Shown here piece by piece: positions 5,436-29,884 of a stretch of DNA of 63,053 bases. Every line of letters begins with the position of its first letter. Positions within the stretch are counted from its first letter, which is position 1. The stretch comes from a virus: positions 1-63,053 of the IMG/VR virus record IMGVR_UViG_3300037076_000066, one strand, 5' to 3'. The translations under genes were made by a program, and so were the position numbers. The notes beneath the pieces are model-generated. The model was not told the origin of the DNA and did not search any database. It saw nothing but the letters and a program-made list of their open reading frames with translations.

Positions 5436-6647
5436 ATGACTAATTTTGAAGATTTATTGTATTTTGACAATTCTTCACTATATTTATATATTGTAGTGAA
5501 GACATATAACACAAAATTAATATTCAGTTGTCCCGAAGATAAAATTCTTCTCGTTGAAACATTGAATTTAAAACAGCAAGCCGCAAATATTATTTCTAAA
5601 ATTAGATTTGATATGAAGACTTGTAATGGTATTATGCCTCTTCACCAACGCTCTTATAAATTAATTAAAGAACAATTACCAACTCTTCCTTCTCAATATA
5701 TCATAAAAGCAGAACAGGATGTCATTGCTAAATATAAAACAATTAGAAAAAATAAACATAAAATAAATGAAGCCGTTACTTTTTCCAAATTATCAACCTC
5801 ATTAGATAAAAGAATTTATAAGTTTTTAGATGATAATAGAATTAAATTGACTACCCACGATAAGAGAATTGTATGTGAATTTGAAACGTATACTAAATTA
5901 AATGAGATGTTGTCTAAGTATAAATTGAGAGACCCATCGGTATTTGTAACTCAAAATAATGACGTTTATGTTTCTCTTGTGTTTGATGATACATTAGAAT
6001 TTATCGATAATAATAAAGCAATCGGAATTGATTTAGGACTAAAACGATTGGTAGCAACTAGTGATGGAACTATAATTAAAGGAAATGAATTTAATAAACA
6101 AAAGAGAAAGATAAGATGGAACAAAAGAAAATTCCAAAGTAAGAAAAATAATTCTCATTCTTCTCGTAAAAAATTAAAATCACTTCGAAAAAAAGAAGCA
6201 AATTTTAGTAAAAATTATATTCATCACGTTGTTAATAATTTATTAAAATCGACAGATGTTAATACATTTGTTATCGAAGATTTAAGTAAAATAAAAAGTA
6301 AGAATAAGGGGAAAAGATTTAACAATCGATTAAGTCAGGTTCCCTTTTATAAGTTTAAGGAAATTTTAATCTACAAAGCACAATCTCTCGGAAAGAGAGT
6401 GGAAATGGTTAAGCCTTATTTTACATCTCAAAATGACCATAGAGGTATTGAGAGTGGTAAAAGAGTAGGTTGTAGATATTATAGTTCGGATGGTGTAGTG
6501 TTAGATGCTGATGTAAATGCAGCAATTAATATACTACAACGAAGTCAGAACAAACACTCCAACTCGTCTTGTAAAGGACTGGATGGACAGGTGACTGTCA
6601 ACTCACCAATCGTCGGAATTAATTCCGGCAAGCCCAAGCGTCTTTAG
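5436..6647 (+). CDS. tnpB: TnpB RNA-guided nuclease (IS200/IS605 family)
   Basis: 403 residues from the first ATG. Family similarity probably begins at residue 21 (VKTYNTKLIF), so GTG at 5496 is an alternative start; an ATATTTATA element lies at 5480-5488 just before it. RuvC-like catalytic residues are all present: D199 in GIDLGLKRLV, E281 in FVIEDLSKIK, and D359 in LDADVNAAINIL. Between the second and third motifs the usual four-cysteine zinc ribbon is degenerate: TSQNDHRGIESGKRVGCRYY keeps only C346. Known function: TnpB cuts DNA next to a target-adjacent motif using an omega RNA made from the element's right end, favouring retention of the element. The stop codon TAG lies inside the right-end hairpin. 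Nuclease activity without a zinc ribbon is plausible but untested. Confidence 0.9.
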   Translation: MTNFEDLLYFDNSSLYLYIVVKTYNTKLIFSCPEDKILLVETLNLKQQAANIISKIRFDMKTCNGIMPLHQRSYKLIKEQLPTLPSQYIIKAEQDVIAKYKTIRKNKHKINEAVTFSKLSTSLDKRIYKFLDDNRIKLTTHDKRIVCEFETYTKLNEMLSKYKLRDPSVFVTQNNDVYVSLVFDDTLEFIDNNKAIGIDLGLKRLVATSDGTIIKGNEFNKQKRKIRWNKRKFQSKKNNSHSSRKKLKSLRKKEANFSKNYIHHVVNNLLKSTDVNTFVIEDLSKIKSKNKGKRFNNRLSQVPFYKFKEILIYKAQSLGKRVEMVKPYFTSQNDHRGIESGKRVGCRYYSSDGVVLDADVNAAINILQRSQNKHSNSSCKGLDGQVTVNSPIVGINSGKPKRL

Positions 6648-17006: not shown

Positions 17007-20000
17007 TTATTCCGATTTTACATTTTCGTCAATTGTGGGTGATACAGTTACATCGATAATGTTCTCGGCTATGATAGTAGATGGAGTCGGATCGAAAAAT
17101 TCACGCAATCCCATTATAAATTCACCTTTATTCTTTTTATTACTGGGTTTGGGTTTTAATTGTCCCTTAACTTCTTCCAATGATAGAGGAGAATCATTTT
17201 CAAAGTTGTGATATAATACACTCTTTCTCTTACCTTCACTATTTTTTCGAGGTTTTCTATTTAATTCATTTTGCCCAAGGGGGTCTTCTCCAAAGGGATG
17301 ATCATTGGCATCGTGTTCACCCGACTGATCTCGGTCGGGACTATGTTCTTCCTTAACTATATCTTCCGGTTTACCTTCTTCTGGTTCTTCGGCAGGTATT
17401 CCCTGTTTATCAGATTCACCCTTCTCATCTTCCGGCGTACCTCCCTCGCCTTCACCTTCTTCGTCACCACCGCCTAATCCCCCAAGACCACCCATTCCGC
17501 CACCACCACCACCACCCGACGAAGAGCCTTTTTCTCCACCATGCCCACCAGCACCAATTTTCTTAAACGGTTTAGCCGGATCATCTCCTTCCGTTTCAAT
17601 AGATTCTAATCTAAATTTCTGCTTGGCATCTTCAACTAATCCCTTGGTAACTTTTTCAATATCATCATCTGACATTTTAAATACATTTTTATATATCCAT
17701 TCACGATTATATATTTTATTATCAATCATATCCGTTGCCAATGCCGTCTTATCCGACCAAATTTCTAATTTTTCTTTTTCAAAGATAGTGCTGGAATTAG
17801 TAAGTTCAACTTTAAAATCAATTAAACTCTCATCACGATATCCTTGAGCATATAAATGAATAATACCAATATTTTCTAATTCACTCCCTATTATCTTCTG
17901 AATCCGTTGAATAGTTCTCGCAAATCGCAAATCTTCCTGCGATAAATTTGCTTTGCCTCCGGTTGATTCATCAAAAGTTAAGAATGCTTTAGGCATTTTT
18001 AATGCGGCAAACATCTTATTTTTAAGATAATCAATATCATCAATACCTGTCCATTCCATTCCGGGCAATGTATCAATTTTCGTTCCTGAATCGCCACCAC
18101 GAACTGGAATAAATAAATCGTCCAACATGTTTTGAAGATTGAATTTTAAATTATATTCACCCGTTCGCTCATCAACATATGGAACTTTTCTCATCTTATC
18201 CATCAACCTCTGCATATGATTATCAACTTCAGCCGGAGCAATACCACCAATATCTGTATAATAAATACGACGTTCTGGAGCACGAACAACACGATGGATC
18301 ATCATTGCGTCTTCGAGAAGACTCAATTGCTTCCATACCCTCCGTGCTCCCTCAATCACACTCTTACCGTAGGGAATGAAATTGGAGTCGCTCAATAATC
18401 TAAAATGAGACATCTGATATCGTTCCAAAACTTCTGCTTGGGATGTATCGGTTGGACGAATTTGAAATTTTACATATTTCTTATTATAAGGATCAGAATT
18501 TTCAATTCTCTCAACATTATAAGTAGAAATCGGTTCCACCATATAAACACCATATTCGGGATTTACATAAGTTTTTAAGTAAAAATCACCATATTTAACA
18601 AGATTTCTTGTCCATGACCAAAGATTAAAGTCAACATGTAAAATTTCTTCATAAAGATTATATAATATCTCTTTTATGTTATTATCTTCGCAATGAACTG
18701 TTACTATTTTACCTAATTCGTTCATGGTTACGCATTCATCACTGTAGATGTCCAATGCGCTAGACAAGATCGGATCTTGATCCATCGTATTGTGACAGAA
18801 TACACTATCCGTAGCAAAGTTTTGATATTTTTCTACAGTAACATCATAAACATCAATTTCACCTACACATTCAATAGAAACTATTTTATGATTTAATTTA
18901 GAAACTATTTCATTTTTAAAAGTATTATTTTGTTCTATGTTAGACATAAAACGTTCTTCATACATAAATTTTGAATAACTTGATACCTCGTTTATAATTT
19001 TTTCCGAATCTTCGTGTTTTATCTTCGGAAAATTTGATTTTAACAAATCTGTATTGGTGACATGATCTGGGCAACTGACATGACACTTTCTACAAAGGGG
19101 AATAAGATTATTTTCATTATTAGCATCTAGGGGATTTTCAAATAGGCGAGGCGTTATTATATGATGAACCGATAATGTCTCGTTCAGTTCTTGTTCATTT
19201 TTAGCACATTCTTGACATACATATTGATACTTTTCTCTTATTTTCTCTCGCAATTCATGCCAGCCCGAAGATTTTAAATATGGTTCTTTAACCTTCCAAG
19301 TATCACCCCCAACATACAAATAATGATTTTCACCCTTAAACGAAGTTGAAAATACTTGTAATCTACATTCATCCGAACAATATTTTGATTTTTTATTTTT
19401 TGGAGTAATATTATATTCTTTTCCACATGACTTACATTGATTTTGGTATAACACGGTGGGTCCGGTAGTTTCACCTAGTATCATACATTCTTTTGAACAA
19501 TATTTTTTATTGTTTGGATTTAAGAATTCCACATTACAACTAAGACAAACTGTTTTATTTCCTTTATATGCCGGGCAATTTTCTCCCCTAAAATTAATAC
19601 TTCTATAATTAGCATAACACGCAAGAGAACAGAATTTGTTGGGACTACTATCAAAAAATCCAAAATTTTCTTTACAAGCTGGACAATTCTTATAATGAAA
19701 TTCTCTATATGCATTTAAGCCGGGTTGATATATTTTATTATCTTTCTGATAAAAAGGCATTACCGACTCGCCAACTCTTAAATCTTTAATGACCTTATAT
19801 TCCCCATTCCTCATAAGAAATGGATGCCCTTCACTTCCAATGACGAATTTACCATCATCAAATACAACTTTCCAGCCAACTCTTTTACCTTCTTTTTTAC
19901 GAGGATGATATGCATTACCCAATTTCATAGAATCTGATTCATGATCATAAGAAAACACATGAAACCGTTCTTGGGGCGAATCTTTATATTTTTCTGTTAA

Positions 20001-20345
20001 TTCTGCAATAGTTGGGTAAGTTCCGTCTGGTAGAGGAATAATAGTTTCGCCCGCAATACAATCATAATCCCTAAACAAATCCATTCTTGCGGCTTGATAA
20101 GATAGAGTAAAATCTCTGGTATAAGCATTATAAGCAGTTGAACGAATTCTATTAAATCGGTCTCTTAGAGAATTTCTATCCGTTGCCATTTGAGAATGGT
20201 CAACATCCTTAACTAATAATTTTTTACCACCAACATTTCTTACGATTGTATCGGATGAAAATAAAGTCTTTAATCTTGCATATAACGATTGCTTTTTAAT
20301 ATCAAGAATATCATCTTGCATCTGTGGATTGGTATTTAATGCCAT
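17007..20345 (-). CDS. 20: Portal protein, T4 gp20-like, containing an HNH intein
   Basis: 1112 residues as translated; 688 after removal of the intein at residues 96-519. Portal sequence flanks the intein at the conserved motif FRDYD|TMDQDPILSSALDIYSDE. Further gp20-like blocks are YGDFYLKTYVNPEYGVYMVE, FIPYGKSVIEGARRVWKQL and MHRVVRAPERRIYYTDIG. It forms the dodecameric ring through which DNA is packaged. The C-terminal 180 residues are an unusual addition: a Gly-rich run, a strongly acidic Glu/Gly tract and a basic tail (KPKPSNKKNKGE). It follows the terminase directly, and an ATATTTATA element lies 3 bases before its ATG. Without intein splicing the protein cannot fold normally. Confidence 0.93.
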   Translation of the reverse strand: MALNTNPQMQDDILDIKKQSLYARLKTLFSSDTIVRNVGGKKLLVKDVDHSQMATDRNSLRDRFNRIRSTAYNAYTRDFTLSYQAARMDLFRDYDCIAGETIIPLPDGTYPTIAELTEKYKDSPQERFHVFSYDHESDSMKLGNAYHPRKKEGKRVGWKVVFDDGKFVIGSEGHPFLMRNGEYKVIKDLRVGESVMPFYQKDNKIYQPGLNAYREFHYKNCPACKENFGFFDSSPNKFCSLACYANYRSINFRGENCPAYKGNKTVCLSCNVEFLNPNNKKYCSKECMILGETTGPTVLYQNQCKSCGKEYNITPKNKKSKYCSDECRLQVFSTSFKGENHYLYVGGDTWKVKEPYLKSSGWHELREKIREKYQYVCQECAKNEQELNETLSVHHIITPRLFENPLDANNENNLIPLCRKCHVSCPDHVTNTDLLKSNFPKIKHEDSEKIINEVSSYSKFMYEERFMSNIEQNNTFKNEIVSKLNHKIVSIECVGEIDVYDVTVEKYQNFATDSVFCHNTMDQDPILSSALDIYSDECVTMNELGKIVTVHCEDNNIKEILYNLYEEILHVDFNLWSWTRNLVKYGDFYLKTYVNPEYGVYMVEPISTYNVERIENSDPYNKKYVKFQIRPTDTSQAEVLERYQMSHFRLLSDSNFIPYGKSVIEGARRVWKQLSLLEDAMMIHRVVRAPERRIYYTDIGGIAPAEVDNHMQRLMDKMRKVPYVDERTGEYNLKFNLQNMLDDLFIPVRGGDSGTKIDTLPGMEWTGIDDIDYLKNKMFAALKMPKAFLTFDESTGGKANLSQEDLRFARTIQRIQKIIGSELENIGIIHLYAQGYRDESLIDFKVELTNSSTIFEKEKLEIWSDKTALATDMIDNKIYNREWIYKNVFKMSDDDIEKVTKGLVEDAKQKFRLESIETEGDDPAKPFKKIGAGGHGGEKGSSSGGGGGGGMGGLGGLGGGDEEGEGEGGTPEDEKGESDKQGIPAEEPEEGKPEDIVKEEHSPDRDQSGEHDANDHPFGEDPLGQNELNRKPRKNSEGKRKSVLYHNFENDSPLSLEEVKGQLKPKPSNKKNKGEFIMGLREFFDPTPSTIIAENIIDVTVSPTIDENVKSE
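18789..20060 (-). other. Intein in portal gene with HNH homing endonuclease and zinc knuckles
   Basis: 424 residues, from Cys96 (CIAGETIIPLPDG) to the C-terminal CHN before Thr520, all canonical splice residues. Block B-like GSEGHPFLMRNGEY and block F/G-like IDVYDVTVEKYQNFA-VFCHN are present. The endonuclease part has several CxxC-type knuckles (NCPACKENF, VCLSCNVEF, QCKSCGKEY, each followed by CS-C) and an HNH core at SVHHIITPRLFENPLDANN with CRKCH. Insertion is between Asp95 and Thr520 at the most conserved portal motif. Boundaries follow directly from extein continuity. Confidence 0.92.
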
Positions 20346-20394: not shown

Positions 20395-23271
20395 TTAGCC
20401 TAAGAGCCATTTGAGTGACTCAGTGCTATTTTTATCTAAAGGTCTATTAGGTGATCGACCCGTTGACATTTCCCATGATTGTTGTGCCACATTTCTTGCT
20501 TGTGCTTTAAACACGGGAGTTGTATCTAATTGAGTTTTATTCATATGAGATAATGATGCCTTGGTTAAATCAATTCCTTGTTGTCGCAATTTTAATGCCG
20601 TATCACGAATCCATAAACATATGCCTAATGCCATAGATAAATCGTCATGATATCCTTGCATGGCCTGTGCCTTCCCATTTTTCCAAATAAAAGTTTCTAA
20701 TTCTGACAATGTTCTAATAGAGTTTATTTGGATAGTTCGTTCTCTCATATATCTTTCTAAGGTTGATATTACCAGTGGTCGTGTTTGAGTATTTGTGCTA
20801 AATCCAGCTTGAGCTTTTTGTTCTTCTCGATTATAATTGTTATTATGTTGACTCTCTACATCAACATACTTCAAATCATTAGTCATATAAAATAAATTGG
20901 GATAACTTTTATCTATAACAGCTTGAATAACTGCATATCCTGTATTTTGCCGCTCAATTACTAATAATGCATTATTATATTCACTGGACAATGCGACTAG
21001 TAAATTCCCAAATTCTTTAGTATTTATATGTCCTCTATATTCAGCACATTGCTCTAATGTTACAGCATCTATTACATGGCATGCTTGATAATCACCCGTA
21101 TCATTTCCCGCCGAGGTATCGGCACTAACAATATATGTTGAATTGCATTCAGGATATTTCCAAATCCATAATGATTTATCTACATATCGACATTCGATTG
21201 GATCTTTTTTAAATGTTTTTTTATAGAATTCGATGGTTGCTAAGTCTACTACAGTATCACCCGACGTTAAGAAGTCACAGTCAAACTCACGTGCTGCTTC
21301 TTTTACTGATGGCTGTTTTAATCCCGCAACCCTTCGCCACTCTTCATCTCGGTCAGGGTGTAATTGCCATGGAAGACTGATGGGATGGAATCCGTTTTTT
21401 CCAATTTTACCATCTACACTATCTTCCGCACTTACCCACATTTTATGAAAGAAATTGCCAACGCCACGGGGAGTTTGATGCCCTATTATTCCGTTATATA
21501 TTACCGAATGACACCAGAAATCATTGGCATCTTCTTGTAATGAAAAATCATAAGTTTCATTCTCCGATGGAGTTATAGATGTAATTTCACACCACACAGT
21601 ATTCTCGTGGATAATAGTATTCCAATAGTTCTGATACTCGTTTGGCATTTTAGTTCCAAATAATGAGTATAATGCTATTACATTTTGTCGGGCTATATCA
21701 TCGGTTTTATATATTCGTTTTGAATTACAGTATTGATTTACAACTACTCCACATTTTTGTTTTATTTCTACAAAATTTAAATTTGAACTATCAACTAAGT
21801 CATTGACAAGTTTAAGAGAGTTCGGGATAATATCTTTACTACATGCTCGTGTTATATTTTTTACCAAATGTTTAGATATTGCGTCTTGTTTTCGAACTAA
21901 ATTAAATCCGACCAAATTAAAATACGTTAGTGCGTATTTTCCTACTATTTGAAATTGATATGTATCATGATTGTGTTTTATGGAATGCTTTCTATTGTTA
22001 CATTGTTCTTTAGTTTGTAAATAAATACCACCCATAATTCCGAAGTTGGATAATATCATCCTAACTTGATTTATTAATAATCTTGAGGTTGATGTTAACT
22101 GAACACATCTATTTGTAGCAGAACCATCCCCATCAAATATTCCACGCAACATCCACTTTGTATTTTCTTCATTCAATTGTAATAATTTTTTCGGAATACA
22201 TTTTTGATATGCTTTGTTAGATAGGTTAAACCCTAAATATTCCATGAATTCTATTAAATTTTTGTTAGATATAGTATAATGCATACCATCCCAGCAGTTG
22301 TAAATTAGATTTAACTTATCGAAAATCCAAGATATATCGTCCCCGCATGTAATTGTAAGAGACGCCCCGGTCATTTCTCCTTGTTTATTTCTGACTTTAT
22401 AAACACTACCTTCAGATATGTATAATCCCACCAAGTAACATAAGTCTGGAGTAATTGAATCGGGCTTAAATGGTGAATGTATTTTATTAGAAACACTAGG
22501 TTTAAAATCAGAAATATCGGTATAGTTTCCCCATATTCTTTTCCCAATTTGATGAGATATATAATCCCCGACACTTAAATCTTCAGATTTATACCACCCA
22601 TATTGTTTGATATCATGTTTAAATGCCCATAATTTATGATTATTAGTGCATTCCAACTCTGAAAATTTCGTTTTTACTATATTGGTTTTTTGTATCCCGT
22701 TATTGTGAATAAGATTCCCACATCTTAATTTCTCGACCCCCAACACATTATAGGTAGGAACTTCATATCCACCAATCTTAGACGTGTCAATGAATTCTCC
22801 AATTTCCTTTATACCAGTGGATGTAATAACCATCGTATCTTTAGTAACGCACGACAATAATATACATTTACCTCCGGTGCTAAGGGCCGGGGACGCCGAA
22901 GAGAACAGTTCTTCTCCATCTTCTAATAGCGCACAATTACTGGATAACACTCCATTAGCAAAAAATTCATTATTTTTTTCAACCGAGTTTAAGTCGTATA
23001 GATCGATAGGTCTATTCATCTTCCGAGTTGATTTTACTGTTAATATATGGTCTTTTCCAATAAATTGCATTCCTTTTTTTATTTCCCTCACGTATATAAA
23101 TTCATTGGATGCCAGTTTAAGTTTATGATTTTCAGAGCATTTGATATATGTCCCATCCGTAAACTTAACATTTATATAAATTTCTTTTTGTAATTTGGAA
23201 ACCGCTTTGAAACTACTCCATCCATTAGGAGTTAACACTTCCCAGTTATTTATTTTCTTGATATCTTTCAT
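20395..23271 (-). CDS. 17: Large terminase, C-terminal half (TerL-C) with split-intein C part and a second intein
   Basis: 958 residues. Residues 1-112 are the C-terminal part of a split intein; 113-140 are extein (CALLEDGEELFSSASPALST-); 141-599 are a complete LAGLIDADG intein; 600-958 are the rest of the terminase, starting TPRGVGNFFHKMW. The extein carries the ATPase coupling segment and the RNase H-like nuclease: Asp in VSADTSAGND, Glu in LLVIERQNTG, Asp in GYHDDLSMALG. After both splicing reactions it should join TerL-N to form a packaging motor and headful nuclease of about 550 residues. TerL-N ends 21 bases upstream in the same frame, separated by stop codons. Confidence 0.93.
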   Translation of the reverse strand: MKDIKKINNWEVLTPNGWSSFKAVSKLQKEIYINVKFTDGTYIKCSENHKLKLASNEFIYVREIKKGMQFIGKDHILTVKSTRKMNRPIDLYDLNSVEKNNEFFANGVLSSNCALLEDGEELFSSASPALSTGGKCILLSCVTKDTMVITSTGIKEIGEFIDTSKIGGYEVPTYNVLGVEKLRCGNLIHNNGIQKTNIVKTKFSELECTNNHKLWAFKHDIKQYGWYKSEDLSVGDYISHQIGKRIWGNYTDISDFKPSVSNKIHSPFKPDSITPDLCYLVGLYISEGSVYKVRNKQGEMTGASLTITCGDDISWIFDKLNLIYNCWDGMHYTISNKNLIEFMEYLGFNLSNKAYQKCIPKKLLQLNEENTKWMLRGIFDGDGSATNRCVQLTSTSRLLINQVRMILSNFGIMGGIYLQTKEQCNNRKHSIKHNHDTYQFQIVGKYALTYFNLVGFNLVRKQDAISKHLVKNITRACSKDIIPNSLKLVNDLVDSSNLNFVEIKQKCGVVVNQYCNSKRIYKTDDIARQNVIALYSLFGTKMPNEYQNYWNTIIHENTVWCEITSITPSENETYDFSLQEDANDFWCHSVIYNGIIGHQTPRGVGNFFHKMWVSAEDSVDGKIGKNGFHPISLPWQLHPDRDEEWRRVAGLKQPSVKEAAREFDCDFLTSGDTVVDLATIEFYKKTFKKDPIECRYVDKSLWIWKYPECNSTYIVSADTSAGNDTGDYQACHVIDAVTLEQCAEYRGHINTKEFGNLLVALSSEYNNALLVIERQNTGYAVIQAVIDKSYPNLFYMTNDLKYVDVESQHNNNYNREEQKAQAGFSTNTQTRPLVISTLERYMRERTIQINSIRTLSELETFIWKNGKAQAMQGYHDDLSMALGICLWIRDTALKLRQQGIDLTKASLSHMNKTQLDTTPVFKAQARNVAQQSWEMSTGRSPNRPLDKNSTESLKWLLG
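21475..22851 (-). other. LAGLIDADG intein within terminase
   Basis: 459 residues (141-599 of TerL-C). It starts CVTKDTMVITSTG and ends NGIIGHQ before Thr600, so the terminal residue is Gln rather than Asn, a known but uncommon variant. Two dodecapeptide motifs of a LAGLIDADG endonuclease are seen at about 279-289 (YLVGLYISEGSV) and 374-384 (WMLRGIFDGDGSA). Insertion lies between ILLS and TPRG, the conserved Ser/Thr coupling motif of the terminase ATPase. Confidence 0.92.
22936..23271 (-). other. Split intein C-terminal part (Int-C) of terminase
   Basis: 112 residues, beginning MKDIKKINNWEVLTPNGWSS and ending FFANGVLSSN before Cys113. The NWEVLTPNGWSSF and FTDGTYIKCSENH segments match the layout of the AceL-TerL-type Int-C. 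The penultimate residue is Ser instead of the usual His. DNA position 22933-22935 encodes the +1 Cys. Confidence 0.88.
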
Positions 23272-23292
23272 TTATTTTATAAATTGTTAGTA

Positions 23293-23394
23293 TTAACTAT
23301 ATTCTTCTAATTCGTATAAATCTTTAATTTTTACTTTTTGTATTTCTCCCGTTATCTTATTTCGGAGATCGATAATAGAATTCCCAGAGATACA
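23293..23394 (-). other. Split intein N-terminal part (Int-N) of terminase
   Basis: 33 residues (165-197 of TerL-N), starting with Cys165 in CISGNSIIDLRNK and ending DLYELEEYS before the stop. It follows the Walker B motif IIDE directly. Such a short Int-N is typical of the atypically split terminase inteins known from viral metagenomes. Confidence 0.88.
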
Positions 23395-23886
23395 CTCATC
23401 AATAATTAATATTGCCAAACTCTTACCAACACCTGACTTTTTTGTTGTGCTAGATGCTTTAATCGAACTTCCATTTACAAATTTTATAGATTTTTTATTA
23501 TTCTCTACGGTCGCTACTTTCATCCACGATGGCAACGCTTCATTGGCAAACGATACCTTTTCCAAGACTTCAATGGCGGCGTCTTGTTTTAGTGATATGA
23601 TTAATATATTTTGATCGCTTTTAAAGATTAAAGTCCAGAGTGAAAAAATCGCAACTAAAGTTGAGAGACCCATCTGTCTTGATTTTAATATTATATTATT
23701 ATCATACTCAGAAAATGCTTTTAATGTATCTTCTTGAAATGGATATAGATTAAAACTCACCGTTTTTCCAGAACTTTGAATTTTAGCATATTTTTTCATG
23801 AAATAAATCGGCGAATTTTTACAACGAGTAAATTCCTCGACGATTATCTCTTTCATCGTCATCTGTTTTTTAGGTTCCGGTATCAT
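23293..23886 (-). CDS. 17: Large terminase, N-terminal half (TerL-N) with split-intein N part
   Basis: 197 residues. ATPase motifs in order: adenine-recognition NLYPFQEDTL (about 46-55), Walker A SRQMGLST (69-76), and Walker B ILIIDE (159-164, with D163 and E164). Residues 165-197 are the Int-N. The protein is inactive alone, since the coupling motif and nuclease are encoded by the next gene; trans-splicing must ligate E164 to Cys113 of TerL-C. The ATG overlaps the TGA of the upstream gene at 23883-23886. The split sits exactly behind the catalytic Walker B acidic residues. Confidence 0.93.
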   Translation of the reverse strand: MIPEPKKQMTMKEIIVEEFTRCKNSPIYFMKKYAKIQSSGKTVSFNLYPFQEDTLKAFSEYDNNIILKSRQMGLSTLVAIFSLWTLIFKSDQNILIISLKQDAAIEVLEKVSFANEALPSWMKVATVENNKKSIKFVNGSSIKASSTTKKSGVGKSLAILIIDECISGNSIIDLRNKITGEIQKVKIKDLYELEEYS

Positions 23887-24554
23887 ATTACTTCCAATTT
23901 AAATTCTTTACATTTGGCTATATATAACTTTTTATTGACCTGTTTAATCTTGGATGCTTCCGTTATTAATTTTTTAATTTTTTTCAAGTCGGACTTAGCA
24001 TCATCAAATATTTTATCTCGATTCGTATTAATCCAGACGGCATCATTTCCAATACCATTTTCACAAGGTAGAGTAACATCCCCAGCATCTTTGGGATGTT
24101 CGATAAAGAATTTAATAAGGGATTTTACCGATTCTTTTTTATCTTTCAAATCGCCCAAGGCATATGAAGATAGTTTATATTTTTCATAAGAATCATAGGC
24201 ACCGACAATTCTTAATTTAGTTTCATATTCAATGAGACAATCTCCACATAATCCCGTTCTTCTATATAACGACATGTCTTGTTTATTCATCCATTTATAA
24301 GAACAATTACAAAATTTACATCTATCATCGCCCATTGCTTCTCTAATAATATCACCTTGAGACTTGGTAAGTTTAACAATCTTACCATTTTCTTTTTTAT
24401 ATTTGATACCTTGTAGTTCAAATTCTTCTCCATCTTGCCGGAACTTTTCTTTTTCGGAAATATGGTTGGATATTCTAATGTCTGTTTTTTCGGAATTCAT
24501 CCAACGACGAATTGTTTCAAGATTTGAATGATTTTTATTTAATTTTATAGCCAT
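23883..24554 (-). CDS. Hypothetical zinc-finger protein upstream of terminase
   Basis: 223 residues. A four-cysteine finger is seen at about 78-105 (RCKFCNCSYKWMN and LCGDCLIEYE). The rest is basic and helical (KSDLKKIKKLITEASKIKQ). Overlapping stop and start with TerL-N suggests coupled translation and a role in packaging; a small-terminase or terminase-accessory function is a candidate, but I see no TerS signature and do not claim it. Confidence 0.65.
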   Translation of the reverse strand: MAIKLNKNHSNLETIRRWMNSEKTDIRISNHISEKEKFRQDGEEFELQGIKYKKENGKIVKLTKSQGDIIREAMGDDRCKFCNCSYKWMNKQDMSLYRRTGLCGDCLIEYETKLRIVGAYDSYEKYKLSSYALGDLKDKKESVKSLIKFFIEHPKDAGDVTLPCENGIGNDAVWINTNRDKIFDDAKSDLKKIKKLITEASKIKQVNKKLYIAKCKEFKLEVI

Positions 24555-24585: not shown

Positions 24586-24738
24586 TCATATTTCTCGAAT
24601 AGCATTTTCTAATTCTCTAAATCTAATATCTGCCGGAGTTACAATTAAACATTCTTCAACTAACGCTTCTAATTTTTGATTATCAATTTCATCTTCGTTA
24701 GAATATTTTTTACTTATCATATCCATAAGAGCACTCAT
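24586..24738 (-). CDS. Small acidic protein, 50 residues
   Basis: Translated from ATG at 24736-24738: starts MSALMDMISKKYSNEDEID and ends RFRELENAIREI before TGA. Predicted helical and acidic. Its ATG overlaps the TGA of the upstream HTH gene (ATGA), and an AGGA lies 12 bases before the start, a rare Shine-Dalgarno-like sequence here. Compact overlap on both sides of a short reading frame is the main support. Function unknown. Confidence 0.55.
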   Translation of the reverse strand: MSALMDMISKKYSNEDEIDNQKLEALVEECLIVTPADIRFRELENAIREI

Positions 24739-24899
24739 GATAATATTTCCTTTTTATTGATTATTGGTTTATCAGTATCAACCATTATCATGCCAGATGG
24801 TAGTCTATATGTTTCAAATGGAATTTGTTTTTTATGGAACCATACCCAAGACGTGCGGTATGTAATACCTTCTTGCTTTGCCCATTTTGATAATTTCAT
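24735..24899 (-). CDS. Small HTH protein resembling the DNA-binding domain of IS607 serine recombinase
   Basis: 54 residues from ATG at 24897-24899: MKLSKWAKQEGITYRTSWVW then FHKKQIPFETYRLPSGMIMV. The pattern LSxWAKxxGxxYRTxxxWFxxxxIP followed by LPSGxIxV is that of the N-terminal MerR-like helix-turn-helix of IS607-family TnpA. No recombinase catalytic domain follows; the frame stops after 54 codons and overlaps the next gene by ATGA. It could be a domesticated regulator, an excisionase-like protein or a transposon remnant. Upstream, TATAGT lies 8 bases before ATG. Confidence 0.7.
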   Translation of the reverse strand: MKLSKWAKQEGITYRTSWVWFHKKQIPFETYRLPSGMIMVDTDKPIINKKEILS

Positions 24900-24971: not shown

Positions 24972-24994
24972 AATCCTCCAAATTAAGGAGGATT
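24972..24994 (-). terminator. Rho-independent-type hairpin
   Basis: AATCCTCC and GGAGGATT pair around a 7-base loop. Read on the minus strand it follows the stop of 25016-26002 and is followed by TGTTATTTT. On the plus strand it lacks a clear T-run, so it most likely ends the minus-strand transcript. Confidence 0.65.
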
Positions 24995-25015: not shown

Positions 25016-26002
25016 TCACCAACTTATCTTATATCTCATCGCTTTAGTATATGTAGTCAAATCTCGTTCTAAGATATATCCGTATTTATTCAATTCAAGT
25101 TTAAGAAGTCTAATCCGGTCATCGTTTAAATCATAAAAAGCATAATGCCCGTATTTAGTTTTAGTTTCACACACACCTCCCCAGTAAATAAATTTATCAC
25201 TACTCTTTGTGCCGGATGCAAAGAGTATATCATCATTAATTTCCTTCATAACTATATATAACCAATTAACTGGAATAGTTTCAGATTCGCATTCGAGTTG
25301 TCTTGCCTTGGCCTGTTCTGATGTTATCATTGGATATGTAGTTGGTTGATTAATCAATGAAGTTGAATTATTAACCATCCATTTTGCCATATCCAATGAA
25401 TTGGCATCGCAATGTTTTTGAATTATATCAAATTGTTCTTTGGGAATATTGATAACCCTTCGTTCTTTTGATGGTTCTTCTTTTTTGGTTGTTAAACCAC
25501 GAAATATCATCGTGTCGGAATTATTAATATTGAGTTCCAATTCGTTTTTGGTAATTTTACCGAGACTGGTTATCGTGGAGGTGTGGTCGCCGTCATTGTG
25601 CCGGAATATCATTTTATACTCTGTATTATAAGATGGTCTTGTTAACCATCTCGGAAGACTTGCATTTAACGATGTGACATCTTGAAAAAATTCGGTTTTA
25701 ATATCCGGATCGCTCGACTCAATATTAATATCTACTGACGTATCGACAATTATTTTCCATAGACAGTATGCAGCTATTACTTTAAACTCATCGCCCCGGA
25801 GAAATTTCAAAACAAGAACTTTTGAAGGTGTTGTTGGTGATAAATAATAGCCTATATTATCAATTATACTTTGCTGATGTATACTGAGAATTTTATTCGT
25901 GGGAATATTTGTATAATTGCATATAAAATACTCAACTGAGTTCTTACATTTTTCATATTCTCCAGTGATTAAGTTTTTCATTGTTAGTGGTTCTTTTTTC
26001 AT
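25016..26002 (-). CDS. Degenerate paralogue of the terminase ATPase domain with a different C-terminus
   Basis: 328 residues. The first 150 residues can be aligned by eye with TerL-N of this phage: TMKNLITGEYEKCKNSVEYF against TMKEIIVEEFTRCKNSPIYF, then LVLKFLRGDEFKVIAAYCLW against IILKSRQMGLSTLVAIFSLW, and TSLNASLPRWL against SFANEALPSWM. The Walker A lysine-serine loop (SRQMGLST) is replaced by FLRGDEFK, and no Walker B IIDE is found, so ATPase activity is very unlikely. The C-terminal half is unrelated to terminase: an RVINIPKEQFDIIQKHCDAN stretch resembles a ribbon-helix-helix segment. It may bind or regulate the terminase or DNA. It ends in a terminator and lies 275 bases upstream of the terminase block's small genes. 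Confidence 0.72.
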   Translation of the reverse strand: MKKEPLTMKNLITGEYEKCKNSVEYFICNYTNIPTNKILSIHQQSIIDNIGYYLSPTTPSKVLVLKFLRGDEFKVIAAYCLWKIIVDTSVDINIESSDPDIKTEFFQDVTSLNASLPRWLTRPSYNTEYKMIFRHNDGDHTSTITSLGKITKNELELNINNSDTMIFRGLTTKKEEPSKERRVINIPKEQFDIIQKHCDANSLDMAKWMVNNSTSLINQPTTYPMITSEQAKARQLECESETIPVNWLYIVMKEINDDILFASGTKSSDKFIYWGGVCETKTKYGHYAFYDLNDDRIRLLKLELNKYGYILERDLTTYTKAMRYKISW

Positions 26003-26101
26003 AATTTATTATTTGTTCTTTCATGAATACATATACATCAAATGATGCAAAGTTATTCTTTTCTTTGAAAATGGACGTAAGTTGTTGACTATCAATGAAA
26101 T

Positions 26102-26416
26102 TTAATTGTTAGTATTCGTTATGTTCCACGGCTTACATTGGCATGTTACCCAACCACATAGTTCACATCTTTTATCTTGTTTCGCCATATCTACTTCGAG
26201 TTCGCATAAAATTTTATAGAAATCCGTATAAATATCACTATACCACAAATCAATCTGGCTGTTCGATAGAGGTAGTCCAGATTCTTTTGCAGTGGATGTT
26301 GTGAATTTAAAATATTTTTTAGCTGCTGCTTCTTTTCCTATTGATTTAATGTCTTTACGCATTTCGACCCATGTGATAACTTGTTCTGGCAATTCATTTT
26401 TATATTCTATTTCCAT
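26102..26416 (-). CDS. Hypothetical small Cys-containing protein
   Basis: 104 residues; the C-terminus RCELCGWVTCQCKP has four clustered cysteines, suggesting metal binding; the remainder is helical with ELPEQVITWVEMRKDIKSIG at the N-terminus. Last gene of the operon that begins with the primase. No family recognised. Confidence 0.6.
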   Translation of the reverse strand: MEIEYKNELPEQVITWVEMRKDIKSIGKEAAAKKYFKFTTSTAKESGLPLSNSQIDLWYSDIYTDFYKILCELEVDMAKQDKRCELCGWVTCQCKPWNITNTNN

Positions 26417-26444: not shown

Positions 26445-26687
26445 TCAATAATTTAATTCTGACGGATTAAATCTCCCATATATTATTGATTTTTTATATG
26501 TAATCTGATATGGTTGGCCGTCAACAATAAATCCCTCGGAATATAAATATCTAAAATAAGAATCAACTTCTTTCTCCCTTTTTAAATTATATGACGGGAA
26601 CCCCGGATATTTAAAGTCGAATTCCATGCATGTGCAATTAACACGTATAAATTTGGATTCAATACCGACATTTGCTATTGGCATCAT
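26445..26687 (-). CDS. Hypothetical small protein
   Basis: 80 residues, beta-rich with many aromatics, no recognised family. Its ATG overlaps the TGA of the fused nuclease gene at 26684-26687, so it is translated with the recombination machinery and could be an accessory factor. No motif found. Confidence 0.58.
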   Translation of the reverse strand: MMPIANVGIESKFIRVNCTCMEFDFKYPGFPSYNLKREKEVDSYFRYLYSEGFIVDGQPYQITYKKSIIYGRFNPSELNY

Positions 26688-29600
26688 ATATGTTGAATTT
26701 GGGAAAATCCATTAACTTGATTAATTTCTATTACCCTTTCGGCACAATCCTTGATGGATGATAAGTGTGAAATTACTACTATTGCCGAGAATTTAGTTTT
26801 TAGGATTGAGAATAAAGTTTCCATATTTGATAAATTAGAAGCATCAAGTGCCGCCATCCCTTCATCACAGAAGAAATAATCGCTCTTTGATATATTACTA
26901 TTTTCAATAAGGGAAACTCGTATAGCCAATTCCATTATAAATCGTTCAAATCCACTACATAATTCAATGGGATGTTTTTTATCTTCATATGAAATATAAG
27001 GAATAATATCACTTCCATCATTTTCCAGTTTAAGAGTAAACTCGGTAATCTGGGTTAGAATATCATTAACTCCTTTTTCAATGGTTGGAATAGCATTACA
27101 GATTATTTTATATGGGATACCATCTCGTCCGACTGCCGAAATATATTTTTCATAGTTATTTAGTTCAATCTCTTTATTTTTAACGAGTTCAATGGTATTC
27201 TTTAGATTAGCTATATTACTTTTAAATACTTCGAGTTTACCATATATTTCCGTTATTTTGTTATTTATTTTTTGAATATTAACTTCAAGAGTTGAGGCTT
27301 CTAATTTATATCTTGAGAGAACAGCATTAACTGAATTATTATTTTCAACGGCTGTTAAATTTCTATTGTAAATTGCTATATTATTATCTATATTAGTTAA
27401 TATCTCTTTATTTTTAACTTGATTATTGCTATAGTTTAAAATGGACGTTGATAACGATTGTAATTCATCTTTTAATGCGCCACGTTTATTTAAGAGCCGA
27501 GTGTATAATTCATATTTAGAATCGACCCATTTAATATTTTCAAAGTCCAATTCTAATGCTTCGAGTTTTTCCATTAATTCTTTTACAATAACTTTGTCCT
27601 GTTTGAGTTGCTCTTGACAGTTTACAGCATCTTTGACGAAATCATTATCAATACAGAATTTACAGTTTGGGTCGTATTTATGAGTCTTTAATCGGTCTAC
27701 TTTATCTAATTTACCTCGAACTTCTACCTTTTTAATATCCATTTTCTTCTTAGCCGCCGAGATTTTATCAGTAATAATCTTATATTTTTTATGATTTTCA
27801 ATTAAATCAAGAGCCTCAATCTTCTTAATACTAGTTTCAACCATTCTAATATATTTACTATACCTCGTAGATTTTTTATTGAGATCGGATATTCCTTTGG
27901 TTACTTGAGAAATCCTTTCTTCCAACTTTAATTTGTTGGTAGTTAATTCTGTTATATTGGTTGGGATATTACTATCCAGTTTAATAAGTTTAATGGACTC
28001 TTCTTGAATTTTCTGATTTATAATGGACAATTCTGATTTTAATTTGGTATGCTCGGCTGTTAAGTCCGTATGAATTGTCGTGGCATGAGTGACGGCATTT
28101 TCCGTCTGGTTTAATTCTGTTTGATAATCTTTACCCTTATAAATTTTTAATTCAGTATTAATTTCCTTCTTCTTGTCATTGGCAATCTTACATAATTTAT
28201 CAAAGACATCGATCCCAATAAATTTGACTAAGATATCTTTTCTATCACTATTACCCATATCAATAAATGATAGATTATTCTTTCCGAATTGGAAATATGC
28301 CGAAGTTAAGATAAAATCATCAAAGGTTCCTACATATGTCCGAATAACTTCATTCGTATCACTTCTTTCTGTGCCGTGCAATTCAATTTCTTCTCCATTA
28401 ACAATTTTCCAGAATCGAACATCAACCTTAACTGCACCAGTTCTTCCCATTGTTCCTTTTCGTTCTATGAAATATCGAATATCATCAATCTCTAATTCCA
28501 ATTTACATTTGAAAGATGATTTTTGGTTATTTAAGACGTGAGTTCCCTTTGAAGATGTTGACGTTTTATCAAATAAACAAAATAATAAACAATTCAAAGC
28601 CGATGATTTTCCACTGGCATTTTTTGCGAATATACCATTAACACCCGTCACATTTTCAAAGTTTATATAATTATCAGAACCATACTTAAACATATTCTCC
28701 CACTCCATCCTGATTAGTTTATATTTAGAAGACCCAATATTATTAGAGGCCACAACCTCTTTATTGATATTTTGATTTATACACATGATATTATCGAGGT
28801 TAAGAGTCGATATATCGGGGCTTATTTCTGAGAGATGCTTTTTAATTAACTCATTCTGGTAAGTTACATCAAATATATTTTTTAAATTTATATCGGATAC
28901 AATTTTATTGGTGGTATCTATATCAGCCGTTTCTCGTATGAACGAACTTTCTATTATATTATGAGTTTCTTTTAATGTTGCTAATATAGTTTTTACTTCG
29001 GATGGAATGGTTTCTTTACAAATAACTCGTAATCTTACATTTTTTGGTAAGGATGATATATCCGTTACTAATTTACCATTCTCTACTCCAATAGTATAAA
29101 ATCCATAGTCATTTTTTAATTCGTGGTGAGTATATGACATATCAGACAAATCCCATAATGAGTAGCCATGTGGATTATTAAATTCAGAATGATTCTGTGA
29201 AATACAAGAACCGGCATATCTAACTATCGGCTTATCATATTGATAATCATATTCTTGTAAATTTTGGGAGAAATGTATGTCACCCAAAAGCAGTGCGTGA
29301 TGATTATCAAATAACGGAAGCATTATTTTCGGGTTTTCTAATACGTGTCCGGAGTCTGATATTGATTGGTCAACTGCCCCATGAAATACCCCTATAATTC
29401 TTTCATATTTATTTTTATATACTGATGGAATATCTTTTCCCAGAGTATATTTTTCTGGTTCGTCGAATACCGACATGTTATTGAATAGAATATTAGAAAA
29501 TCCATATAATCCACTCTCCCGTAAATAATATACGTTTGAGTGATTGAGGGAATTTACGATTGGAGTTATACTATCTAATCGGCTTTTATTGGATAGCACT

Positions 29601-29884
29601 GCGTCGTGATTGCCAGCAATTATAATCAGAGGTCGTATATCAGCGATATTTTTAATAAATTCCGAGGCCAATTGTAAACTTTCAGGAGAAATTTCGTTTT
29701 TTTGGTGCAACAAATCTCCTGCAAAAACAACTATTGTAGTTTCTGATGTATTTTTTATATCCGTATATAATACATCAAATACTTCCCGAAATTCTATATT
29801 GCGAACAGAATTTCTTATATGGGCATCGGCCAAATGTAATATATGTGTTACTTTTTCTATTTCTGTTTTTAATATTGTAATCAT
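26684..29884 (-). CDS. 47-46: Fused SbcD-SbcC (T4 gp47-gp46-like) recombination nuclease
   Basis: 1066 residues combining two normally separate subunits. Residues 1-340 are the calcineurin-like nuclease: LADAHIR (D20, H22), FAGDLLHQKN (D57), AGNHD (92-94), FHG (168) and LGDIHF (202-204). Residues 385-1066 are the SMC-like ATPase: Walker A GIFAKNASGKSS (418-428), a long coiled coil with a zinc hook NCKFC near its centre, signature LCSGFERFIMELAIR, Walker B YFFCDEGMAALD and a switch His in VVISHLSS. It resects DNA ends to start recombination-dependent replication. In T4 genes 47 and 46 are separate; the fusion fixes 1:1 stoichiometry. The start overlaps the primase stop (29881-29884). Confidence 0.93.
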   Translation of the reverse strand: MITILKTEIEKVTHILHLADAHIRNSVRNIEFREVFDVLYTDIKNTSETTIVVFAGDLLHQKNEISPESLQLASEFIKNIADIRPLIIIAGNHDAVLSNKSRLDSITPIVNSLNHSNVYYLRESGLYGFSNILFNNMSVFDEPEKYTLGKDIPSVYKNKYERIIGVFHGAVDQSISDSGHVLENPKIMLPLFDNHHALLLGDIHFSQNLQEYDYQYDKPIVRYAGSCISQNHSEFNNPHGYSLWDLSDMSYTHHELKNDYGFYTIGVENGKLVTDISSLPKNVRLRVICKETIPSEVKTILATLKETHNIIESSFIRETADIDTTNKIVSDINLKNIFDVTYQNELIKKHLSEISPDISTLNLDNIMCINQNINKEVVASNNIGSSKYKLIRMEWENMFKYGSDNYINFENVTGVNGIFAKNASGKSSALNCLLFCLFDKTSTSSKGTHVLNNQKSSFKCKLELEIDDIRYFIERKGTMGRTGAVKVDVRFWKIVNGEEIELHGTERSDTNEVIRTYVGTFDDFILTSAYFQFGKNNLSFIDMGNSDRKDILVKFIGIDVFDKLCKIANDKKKEINTELKIYKGKDYQTELNQTENAVTHATTIHTDLTAEHTKLKSELSIINQKIQEESIKLIKLDSNIPTNITELTTNKLKLEERISQVTKGISDLNKKSTRYSKYIRMVETSIKKIEALDLIENHKKYKIITDKISAAKKKMDIKKVEVRGKLDKVDRLKTHKYDPNCKFCIDNDFVKDAVNCQEQLKQDKVIVKELMEKLEALELDFENIKWVDSKYELYTRLLNKRGALKDELQSLSTSILNYSNNQVKNKEILTNIDNNIAIYNRNLTAVENNNSVNAVLSRYKLEASTLEVNIQKINNKITEIYGKLEVFKSNIANLKNTIELVKNKEIELNNYEKYISAVGRDGIPYKIICNAIPTIEKGVNDILTQITEFTLKLENDGSDIIPYISYEDKKHPIELCSGFERFIMELAIRVSLIENSNISKSDYFFCDEGMAALDASNLSNMETLFSILKTKFSAIVVISHLSSIKDCAERVIEINQVNGFSQIQHI

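What the first reader, a model, noticed from the sequence alone, without database searches (positions are those of the whole stretch)
25016..26002. Catalytically dead paralogue of the terminase ATPase domain with an unrelated C-terminal domain
The first 150 residues align by eye with this phage's TerL-N (TMKNLITGEYEKCKNSVEYF / TMKEIIVEEFTRCKNSPIYF; LVLKFLRGDEFKVIAAYCLW / IILKSRQMGLSTLVAIFSLW; LNASLPRWL / ANEALPSWM). Walker A is replaced and Walker B is absent. The remaining half is new and includes a possible ribbon-helix-helix segment. A duplicated, inactivated motor domain near the terminase operon suggests a regulator, decoy or packaging adaptor. I know of no described example.
Basis: partly seen in the sequence, partly recalled or inferred. 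Interest (0 to 1): 0.75.

Follow-up and report, generated by a model that had tools for sequence, protein, structure and literature searches.

The report
Dead terminase motor-domain copy in phage
A phage carries a second, heavily changed copy of part of its DNA-packaging motor that has lost the ATP-using parts and gained a new tail end; similar stand-alone copies turn up in a few other phages, and what they do is unknown but can be tested.

Summary
The ORF is on the MINUS strand (25016-26002, 328 aa). Residues ~5-151 are homologous to the ATPase subdomain of this phage's own large terminase (BLASTP 27% over 127 aa, E=6e-11; a TerL HMM gives 34-37 bits against 9.9 for the best of 5000 shuffles). 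Walker A and the Walker B glutamate are lost, while the N-terminal helices and LPxW are kept. The C-terminal half matches nothing. The "ribbon-helix-helix" is not supported by any profile. The open frame is far too long for chance. It lies in a variable spot between the recombination and packaging genes, closed by a terminator. A sister phage (76% at the adjacent gene) has the flanking genes but not this ORF, so it looks accessory. Stand-alone TerL ATPase-domain paralogues also occur in three other phage groups: Sinorhizobium phages phiM12/phiN3 (gp94, motifs intact, between TerS and TerL), and two huge uncultured phages (LR756508, with an RHH-like N-terminus; LR756500, with degenerate motifs beside a split-intein TerL). 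The window ORF is an extreme, inactivated case of a recurrent and apparently undiscussed type. Regulator or decoy of packaging remains a hypothesis (~0.4).

The parts
25016..26002 (-). The ORF: 328 aa TerL ATPase-domain paralogue with new C-terminal half
   Evidence: stop-free 328 codons at 33% GC, 0 of 20000 shuffles open; codon score like other genes of the phage
25550..25990 (-). Residues 5-151: region homologous to TerL ATPase subdomain I
   Evidence: HMM alignment; BLASTP; AF2 pLDDT mostly 70-95 over residues 1-40 and 70-120, lower at 41-70, and built on a TerL alignment
25778..25807 (-). Residues 66-75 (KFLRGDEFKV) at the Walker A position (KSRQMGLSTL in TerL): P-loop lost
25352..25459 (-). 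Residues 182-217, the proposed ribbon-helix-helix: two helices predicted at low confidence, no profile support
25016..25348 (-). Residues 219-328, orphan C-terminal region
   Evidence: last 99 bp identical in L083
24972..24994 (-). Intrinsic terminator directly after the ORF, also present in L083 after a different gene
   Evidence: z=-3.7
26040..26105 (-). 66-bp stretch before the ORF, 89% identical to the stretch right after the SbcCD-like gene in L085; nature unresolved
23293..23886 (-). The phage's own TerL N-terminal part plus N-piece of a split intein inserted after Walker B IIDE
   Evidence: aligns to T4 gp17 ATPase domain
20395..23271 (-). C-piece of the split intein plus the rest of TerL (with a second LAGLIDADG intein)
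23883..24554 (-). 223-aa gene upstream of TerL, conserved in sister phages (TerS position, unproven)

Best explanation
The gene descends from a copy of a T4-type large terminase cut down to its ATPase subdomain. It lost the nucleotide-binding and hydrolysis motifs and gained a new C-terminal half. It is kept as an accessory gene in a variable spot beside the packaging genes. Most likely it acts without ATP: the retained ATPase-domain scaffold imitates a TerL subunit and binds a TerL partner (a neighbouring TerL, the small terminase or the portal), and so modulates packaging by this phage or blocks that of a competitor. Shown: homology, motif loss, intact reading frame, presence/absence among sister phages. 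Inferred: binding and regulation.
For: Homology. Motif loss with the N-terminal helix residues (E15, C19, F26, Y30) and LPxW kept. Not a decaying frame. Missing from the matching place and from the whole 67.5-kb fragment of sister phage L085. Identical 3' end in a second phage (L083). Stand-alone TerL ATPase paralogues recur in other phages, two of them directly beside TerL (phiN3 gp94 and LR756500). T4 TerS stimulates and inhibits gp17 activities through direct contacts (PMC9958956), so a TerL mimic has partners to act on.
Against: No interaction evidence. Very long branch (about 4.5-10 changes per site), so old binding surfaces may be gone. The terminator separates it from the TerL gene set. 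The C-terminal half may carry an unrelated function.
Confidence: 0.4

Rival explanations
1. Exaptation to an unrelated job: the TerL scaffold was only raw material, and the protein now works through its new C-terminal half (for example DNA or host-protein binding), with no part in packaging.
For: Extreme divergence; orphan C-terminal half; variable accessory spot closed by a terminator.
Against: Structural residues of the TerL domain are selectively kept (21 of 77 highly conserved columns); adjacency to packaging genes; similar TerL-adjacent paralogues in other phages.
Confidence: 0.3
2. A by-product of homing: partial TerL duplication left by double-strand-break repair at the intein-invaded TerL gene, now neutral and drifting.
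For: In the window, in L083 and in LR756500 the TerL next door is broken by a split intein; L085 has neither intein in TerL nor paralogue.
Against: 328 open codons at 33% GC, phage-like codon use in both halves and a clean terminator argue for selection. phiN3 and LR756508 have paralogues and no intein in TerL.
Confidence: 0.15
3. It is this phage's small terminase or a needed packaging adaptor.
For: Position upstream of TerL; phiN3 places a TerL-ATPase paralogue between TerS and TerL.
Against: The sister phage L085 lacks it at that place and in the 67.5 kb held; a conserved 223-aa gene already sits directly before TerL.
Confidence: 0.07
4. Chance or alignment artefact: no relation to TerL.
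For: Pairwise identity only 27%; Foldseek of the whole model finds nothing significant.
Against: HMM score far above 5000 shuffles, E=6e-11, PHROG 5989 hit. The Foldseek null is probably due to the low-confidence C-terminal strands.
Confidence: 0.02

Closest known systems
T4-type large terminase gp17 ATPase domain (PHROG 5989, Pfam Terminase_6N, PDB 3cpe/3ezk)
   Same: Residues 5-151 align to the start of the ATPase core; N-terminal helices, strand/helix after the P-loop and LPxW are kept.
   Different: No Walker A, no Walker B glutamate, no Q-motif FQ, no rest of the ATPase domain, no nuclease; new C-terminal half.
Emdodecavirus gp94 (phiN3 PHIN3_97; phiM12, phiM7, phiM19), annotated 'terminase large subunit'
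   Same: Stand-alone TerL ATPase-subdomain paralogue of 194 aa next to a complete TerL (35% identical to it).
   Different: Walker A (GKTT) and B (YIDE) intact; no extra C-terminal half; sits between TerS and TerL.
LR756500.1 (462-kb phage) 272-aa ORF at 193335-194150
   Same: Stand-alone TerL ATPase-like paralogue with degenerate motifs (SSRQMGISM, IIDN), directly beside a split-intein TerL.
   Different: Keeps the motif positions and the later part of the ATPase domain; no new C-terminal domain; only a weak direct match to P0001 (E=0.006).
LR756508.1 (484-kb phage) 288-aa ORF at 184952-185815
   Same: Stand-alone TerL ATPase-like paralogue; P0001 matches it better (5.6e-6) than that phage's TerL (9.9e-5).
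   Different: Intact motifs, RHH-like N-terminus, about 43 kb from TerL.

Membership tests
Large terminase (TerL, PHROG 5989 / Terminase_6N) | Homologous ATPase core | tested here: met
   (first ~150 residues only; Pfam itself gives no hit)
Large terminase (TerL, PHROG 5989 / Terminase_6N) | Walker A P-loop | tested here: not met
   KSRQMGLST replaced by KFLRGDEFK
Large terminase (TerL, PHROG 5989 / Terminase_6N) | Walker B Asp-Glu | tested here: not met
   no DE at the aligned position
Large terminase (TerL, PHROG 5989 / Terminase_6N) | RNase H-like nuclease domain | tested here: not met
   nothing in residues 171-328
Ribbon-helix-helix DNA-binding proteins | Match to an RHH profile with strand-helix-helix | tested here: not met
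   no RHH family hit in Pfam, NCBIfam or PDB at E up to 10; two helices predicted at pLDDT about 40. A weak test: the RHH-like N-terminus of the LR756508 ORF also finds no Pfam model
Stand-alone TerL ATPase-domain paralogues (working group, not a named family) | TerL ATPase-domain homology without nuclease, in a phage with a separate full TerL | tested here: met
   window has TerL at 20395-23886
Stand-alone TerL ATPase-domain paralogues (working group, not a named family) | Common ancestry of the paralogues with each other, apart from TerL | tested here: inconclusive
   branches too long, placement unresolved
Small terminase (TerS) | Essential, found in all sister phages | tested here: not met
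   absent in the L085 fragment; that contig is incomplete

The most novel reading that the evidence does not exclude
T4-type phages repeatedly spin off stand-alone copies of their packaging ATPase domain that work as regulators or decoys of packaging motors. The window's is a fully inactive pseudo-ATPase with a new domain, possibly linked to phages whose TerL must be assembled by split-intein trans-splicing (for example by holding the unspliced TerL half or keeping unspliced TerL out of the motor).
Probability: 0.2. Interest if true: 0.8.

Novelty: new variant of a known kind. Interest (0 to 1): 0.5.

Why it matters
Inactive copies of motor subunits are common regulators in other ring ATPases (established knowledge), but I found no report of one for a viral packaging motor in the open-access papers searched. 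If the gene acts on packaging, it would be a phage-made brake, adaptor or weapon. The cultured Sinorhizobium phages offer a ready system to test the stand-alone form.

Tried and rejected
No relatives of the full protein in viral contigs, GTDB genomes or phages, apart from the 3' end in L083 and TerLs. A second TerL-like copy was sought within the flanks of 80 TerL loci and across 18 contigs/phage records: complete ones only in LR756508 and LR756500. The second hit in L056's contig (G022) is cut by the contig end beside a second TerS-like gene, so it may be a chimera. Foldseek of the full model: uninformative. C-terminal half folded alone: pLDDT 38. Promoter idea for the 66-bp element: the Bacteroidota-type TAnnTTTG motif is hardly enriched before genes (0.76 against 0.54 per kb), so not claimed. 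Age of duplication: tree saturated. Where the phage's lineage differs from other TerLs, the ORF matches the lineage state at 8 columns and the majority state at 6, a weak hint of an origin within this lineage. Papers: none found on TerL paralogues, decoys or a second terminase.

Full report
OBSERVATION. The ORF lies on the minus strand, 25016-26002, 328 aa. Against the window's own TerL N-part (23293-23886) BLASTP gives 27% identity over 127 residues, E=6e-11. PHROG 5989 (TerL) hits residues 9-134 at E=0.0015. An HMM built from 73 TerL-N sequences of 80 viral loci scores residues 5-151 at 34-37 bits; the best of 5000 composition-matched shuffles gets 9.9 bits. The relation is real. Of 77 columns more than 90% conserved in TerL the ORF keeps 21, mostly the first helices (E15, C19, F26, Y30, I33), W82 and L116-P117-W119. 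Of the P-loop K-S-R-Q-x-G-x-S-T only the first K remains, and the Walker B glutamate is missing. Some alignments place a gap at the P-loop instead; the motif is lost either way. Loss of ATP use is inferred from sequence, not shown.

THE C-TERMINAL HALF. Residues 171-328 find no convincing match in Pfam, NCBIfam, PHROGs, PDB sequences or phage genomes. The proposed ribbon-helix-helix (residues ~182-217) finds no RHH profile even at E=10. AlphaFold2 puts two helices there at very low confidence. I therefore do not claim an RHH, though short RHH segments are easily missed by such profiles.

STRUCTURE. With an alignment of TerL rows AF2 gives good confidence for most of residues 1-40 and 70-120 and low confidence beyond; this model is biased to TerL by its alignment. 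Foldseek gives no significant match for the whole model.

IS IT A GENE? A 328-codon open frame at 33% GC has a chance of about 8e-12 and no shuffle of 20000 was open. Codon scores of both halves are like those of other genes of the phage. A strong terminator hairpin follows (24972-24994) and is conserved in L083.

SURROUNDINGS. Order on the minus strand: SbcCD-like gene (26684-29884), two small genes, this ORF, terminator, two small ORFs, a 223-aa gene, TerL. TerL is broken in two by what reads as a split intein inserted right after the Walker B IIDE (23293-23886 and 20395-23271), with a further LAGLIDADG intein. In the sister phage L085 (76% identical in the 223-aa gene) the same flanking genes are present, the ORF is absent there and anywhere in its 67.5 kb, and TerL has no intein. 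L083 carries the last 99 bp of the ORF unchanged, then a different gene, the same terminator and the same split-intein TerL. So this is a variable, accessory spot.

RELATIVES ELSEWHERE. Tracking second TerL-like copies gave three further cases. (a) LR756508.1, 484 kb: a 288-aa ORF with an RHH-like start and intact TerL ATPase motifs, about 43 kb from TerL. (b) LR756500.1, 462 kb: a 272-aa ORF with degenerate motifs (SSRQMGISM; IIDN) directly beside a TerL split by an intein at Walker A. (c) Sinorhizobium phages phiN3, phiM12, phiM7, phiM19: gp94, 194 aa, intact motifs, between TerS and a complete TerL, 82% identical between phiN3 and the others and annotated as a second 'terminase large subunit'. 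All have long branches; trees do not settle whether they share an origin. Most T4-like records tested have no second copy.

MECHANISM. Best reading: an ATP-independent TerL mimic that binds TerL's partners and tunes or blocks packaging (0.4). Rivals: exaptation to an unrelated role (0.3), a relic of intein-driven duplication (0.15), small terminase/adaptor (0.07), no relation (0.02). The co-occurrence of degenerate paralogue and split-intein TerL (window, L083, LR756500; neither in L085) is noted, but these are at most two independent cases.

NOVELTY. TerL is well known. Stand-alone, inactive TerL ATPase paralogues seem undiscussed in the open papers I could search, though one group of stand-alone copies is in public annotation. 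New variant of a known kind.

Noticed in passing
window 20395-23886 (-): TerL gene is fractured by a split intein at Walker B (IIDE|C) and carries a second LAGLIDADG intein; close relative L004 has a continuous TerL without either.
   Followed up: partly
L121 4240-7828 (LR756500.1): Huge-phage TerL split at Walker A by a split intein with a free-standing homing-endonuclease-like ORF between the halves, next to a degenerate TerL ATPase paralogue.
   Followed up: partly
window 24735-24899 (-): 54-aa ORF like the N-terminal part of a transposase (PHROG 6620, E=0.009; IS607-type HTH by eye), standing alone; L083 and L085 have a different 55-57 aa small ORF in that place.
   Followed up: partly
window 26040-26105: 66-bp stretch 89% conserved with L085 although the flanking non-coding DNA is not; promoter, remnant or other element not decided.
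   Followed up: partly
window 17007-20345 (-): Portal-like ORF with what looks like an HNH-containing intein; L004's portal has a different insert at another site.
   Followed up: no
window 5436-6647 (+): TnpB-like ORF on the strand opposite to most genes.
   Followed up: no
L125 3333-3917 (phiN3 gp94): Conserved stand-alone TerL ATPase paralogue with intact motifs between TerS and TerL in Emdodecavirus, function apparently undescribed.
   Followed up: partly
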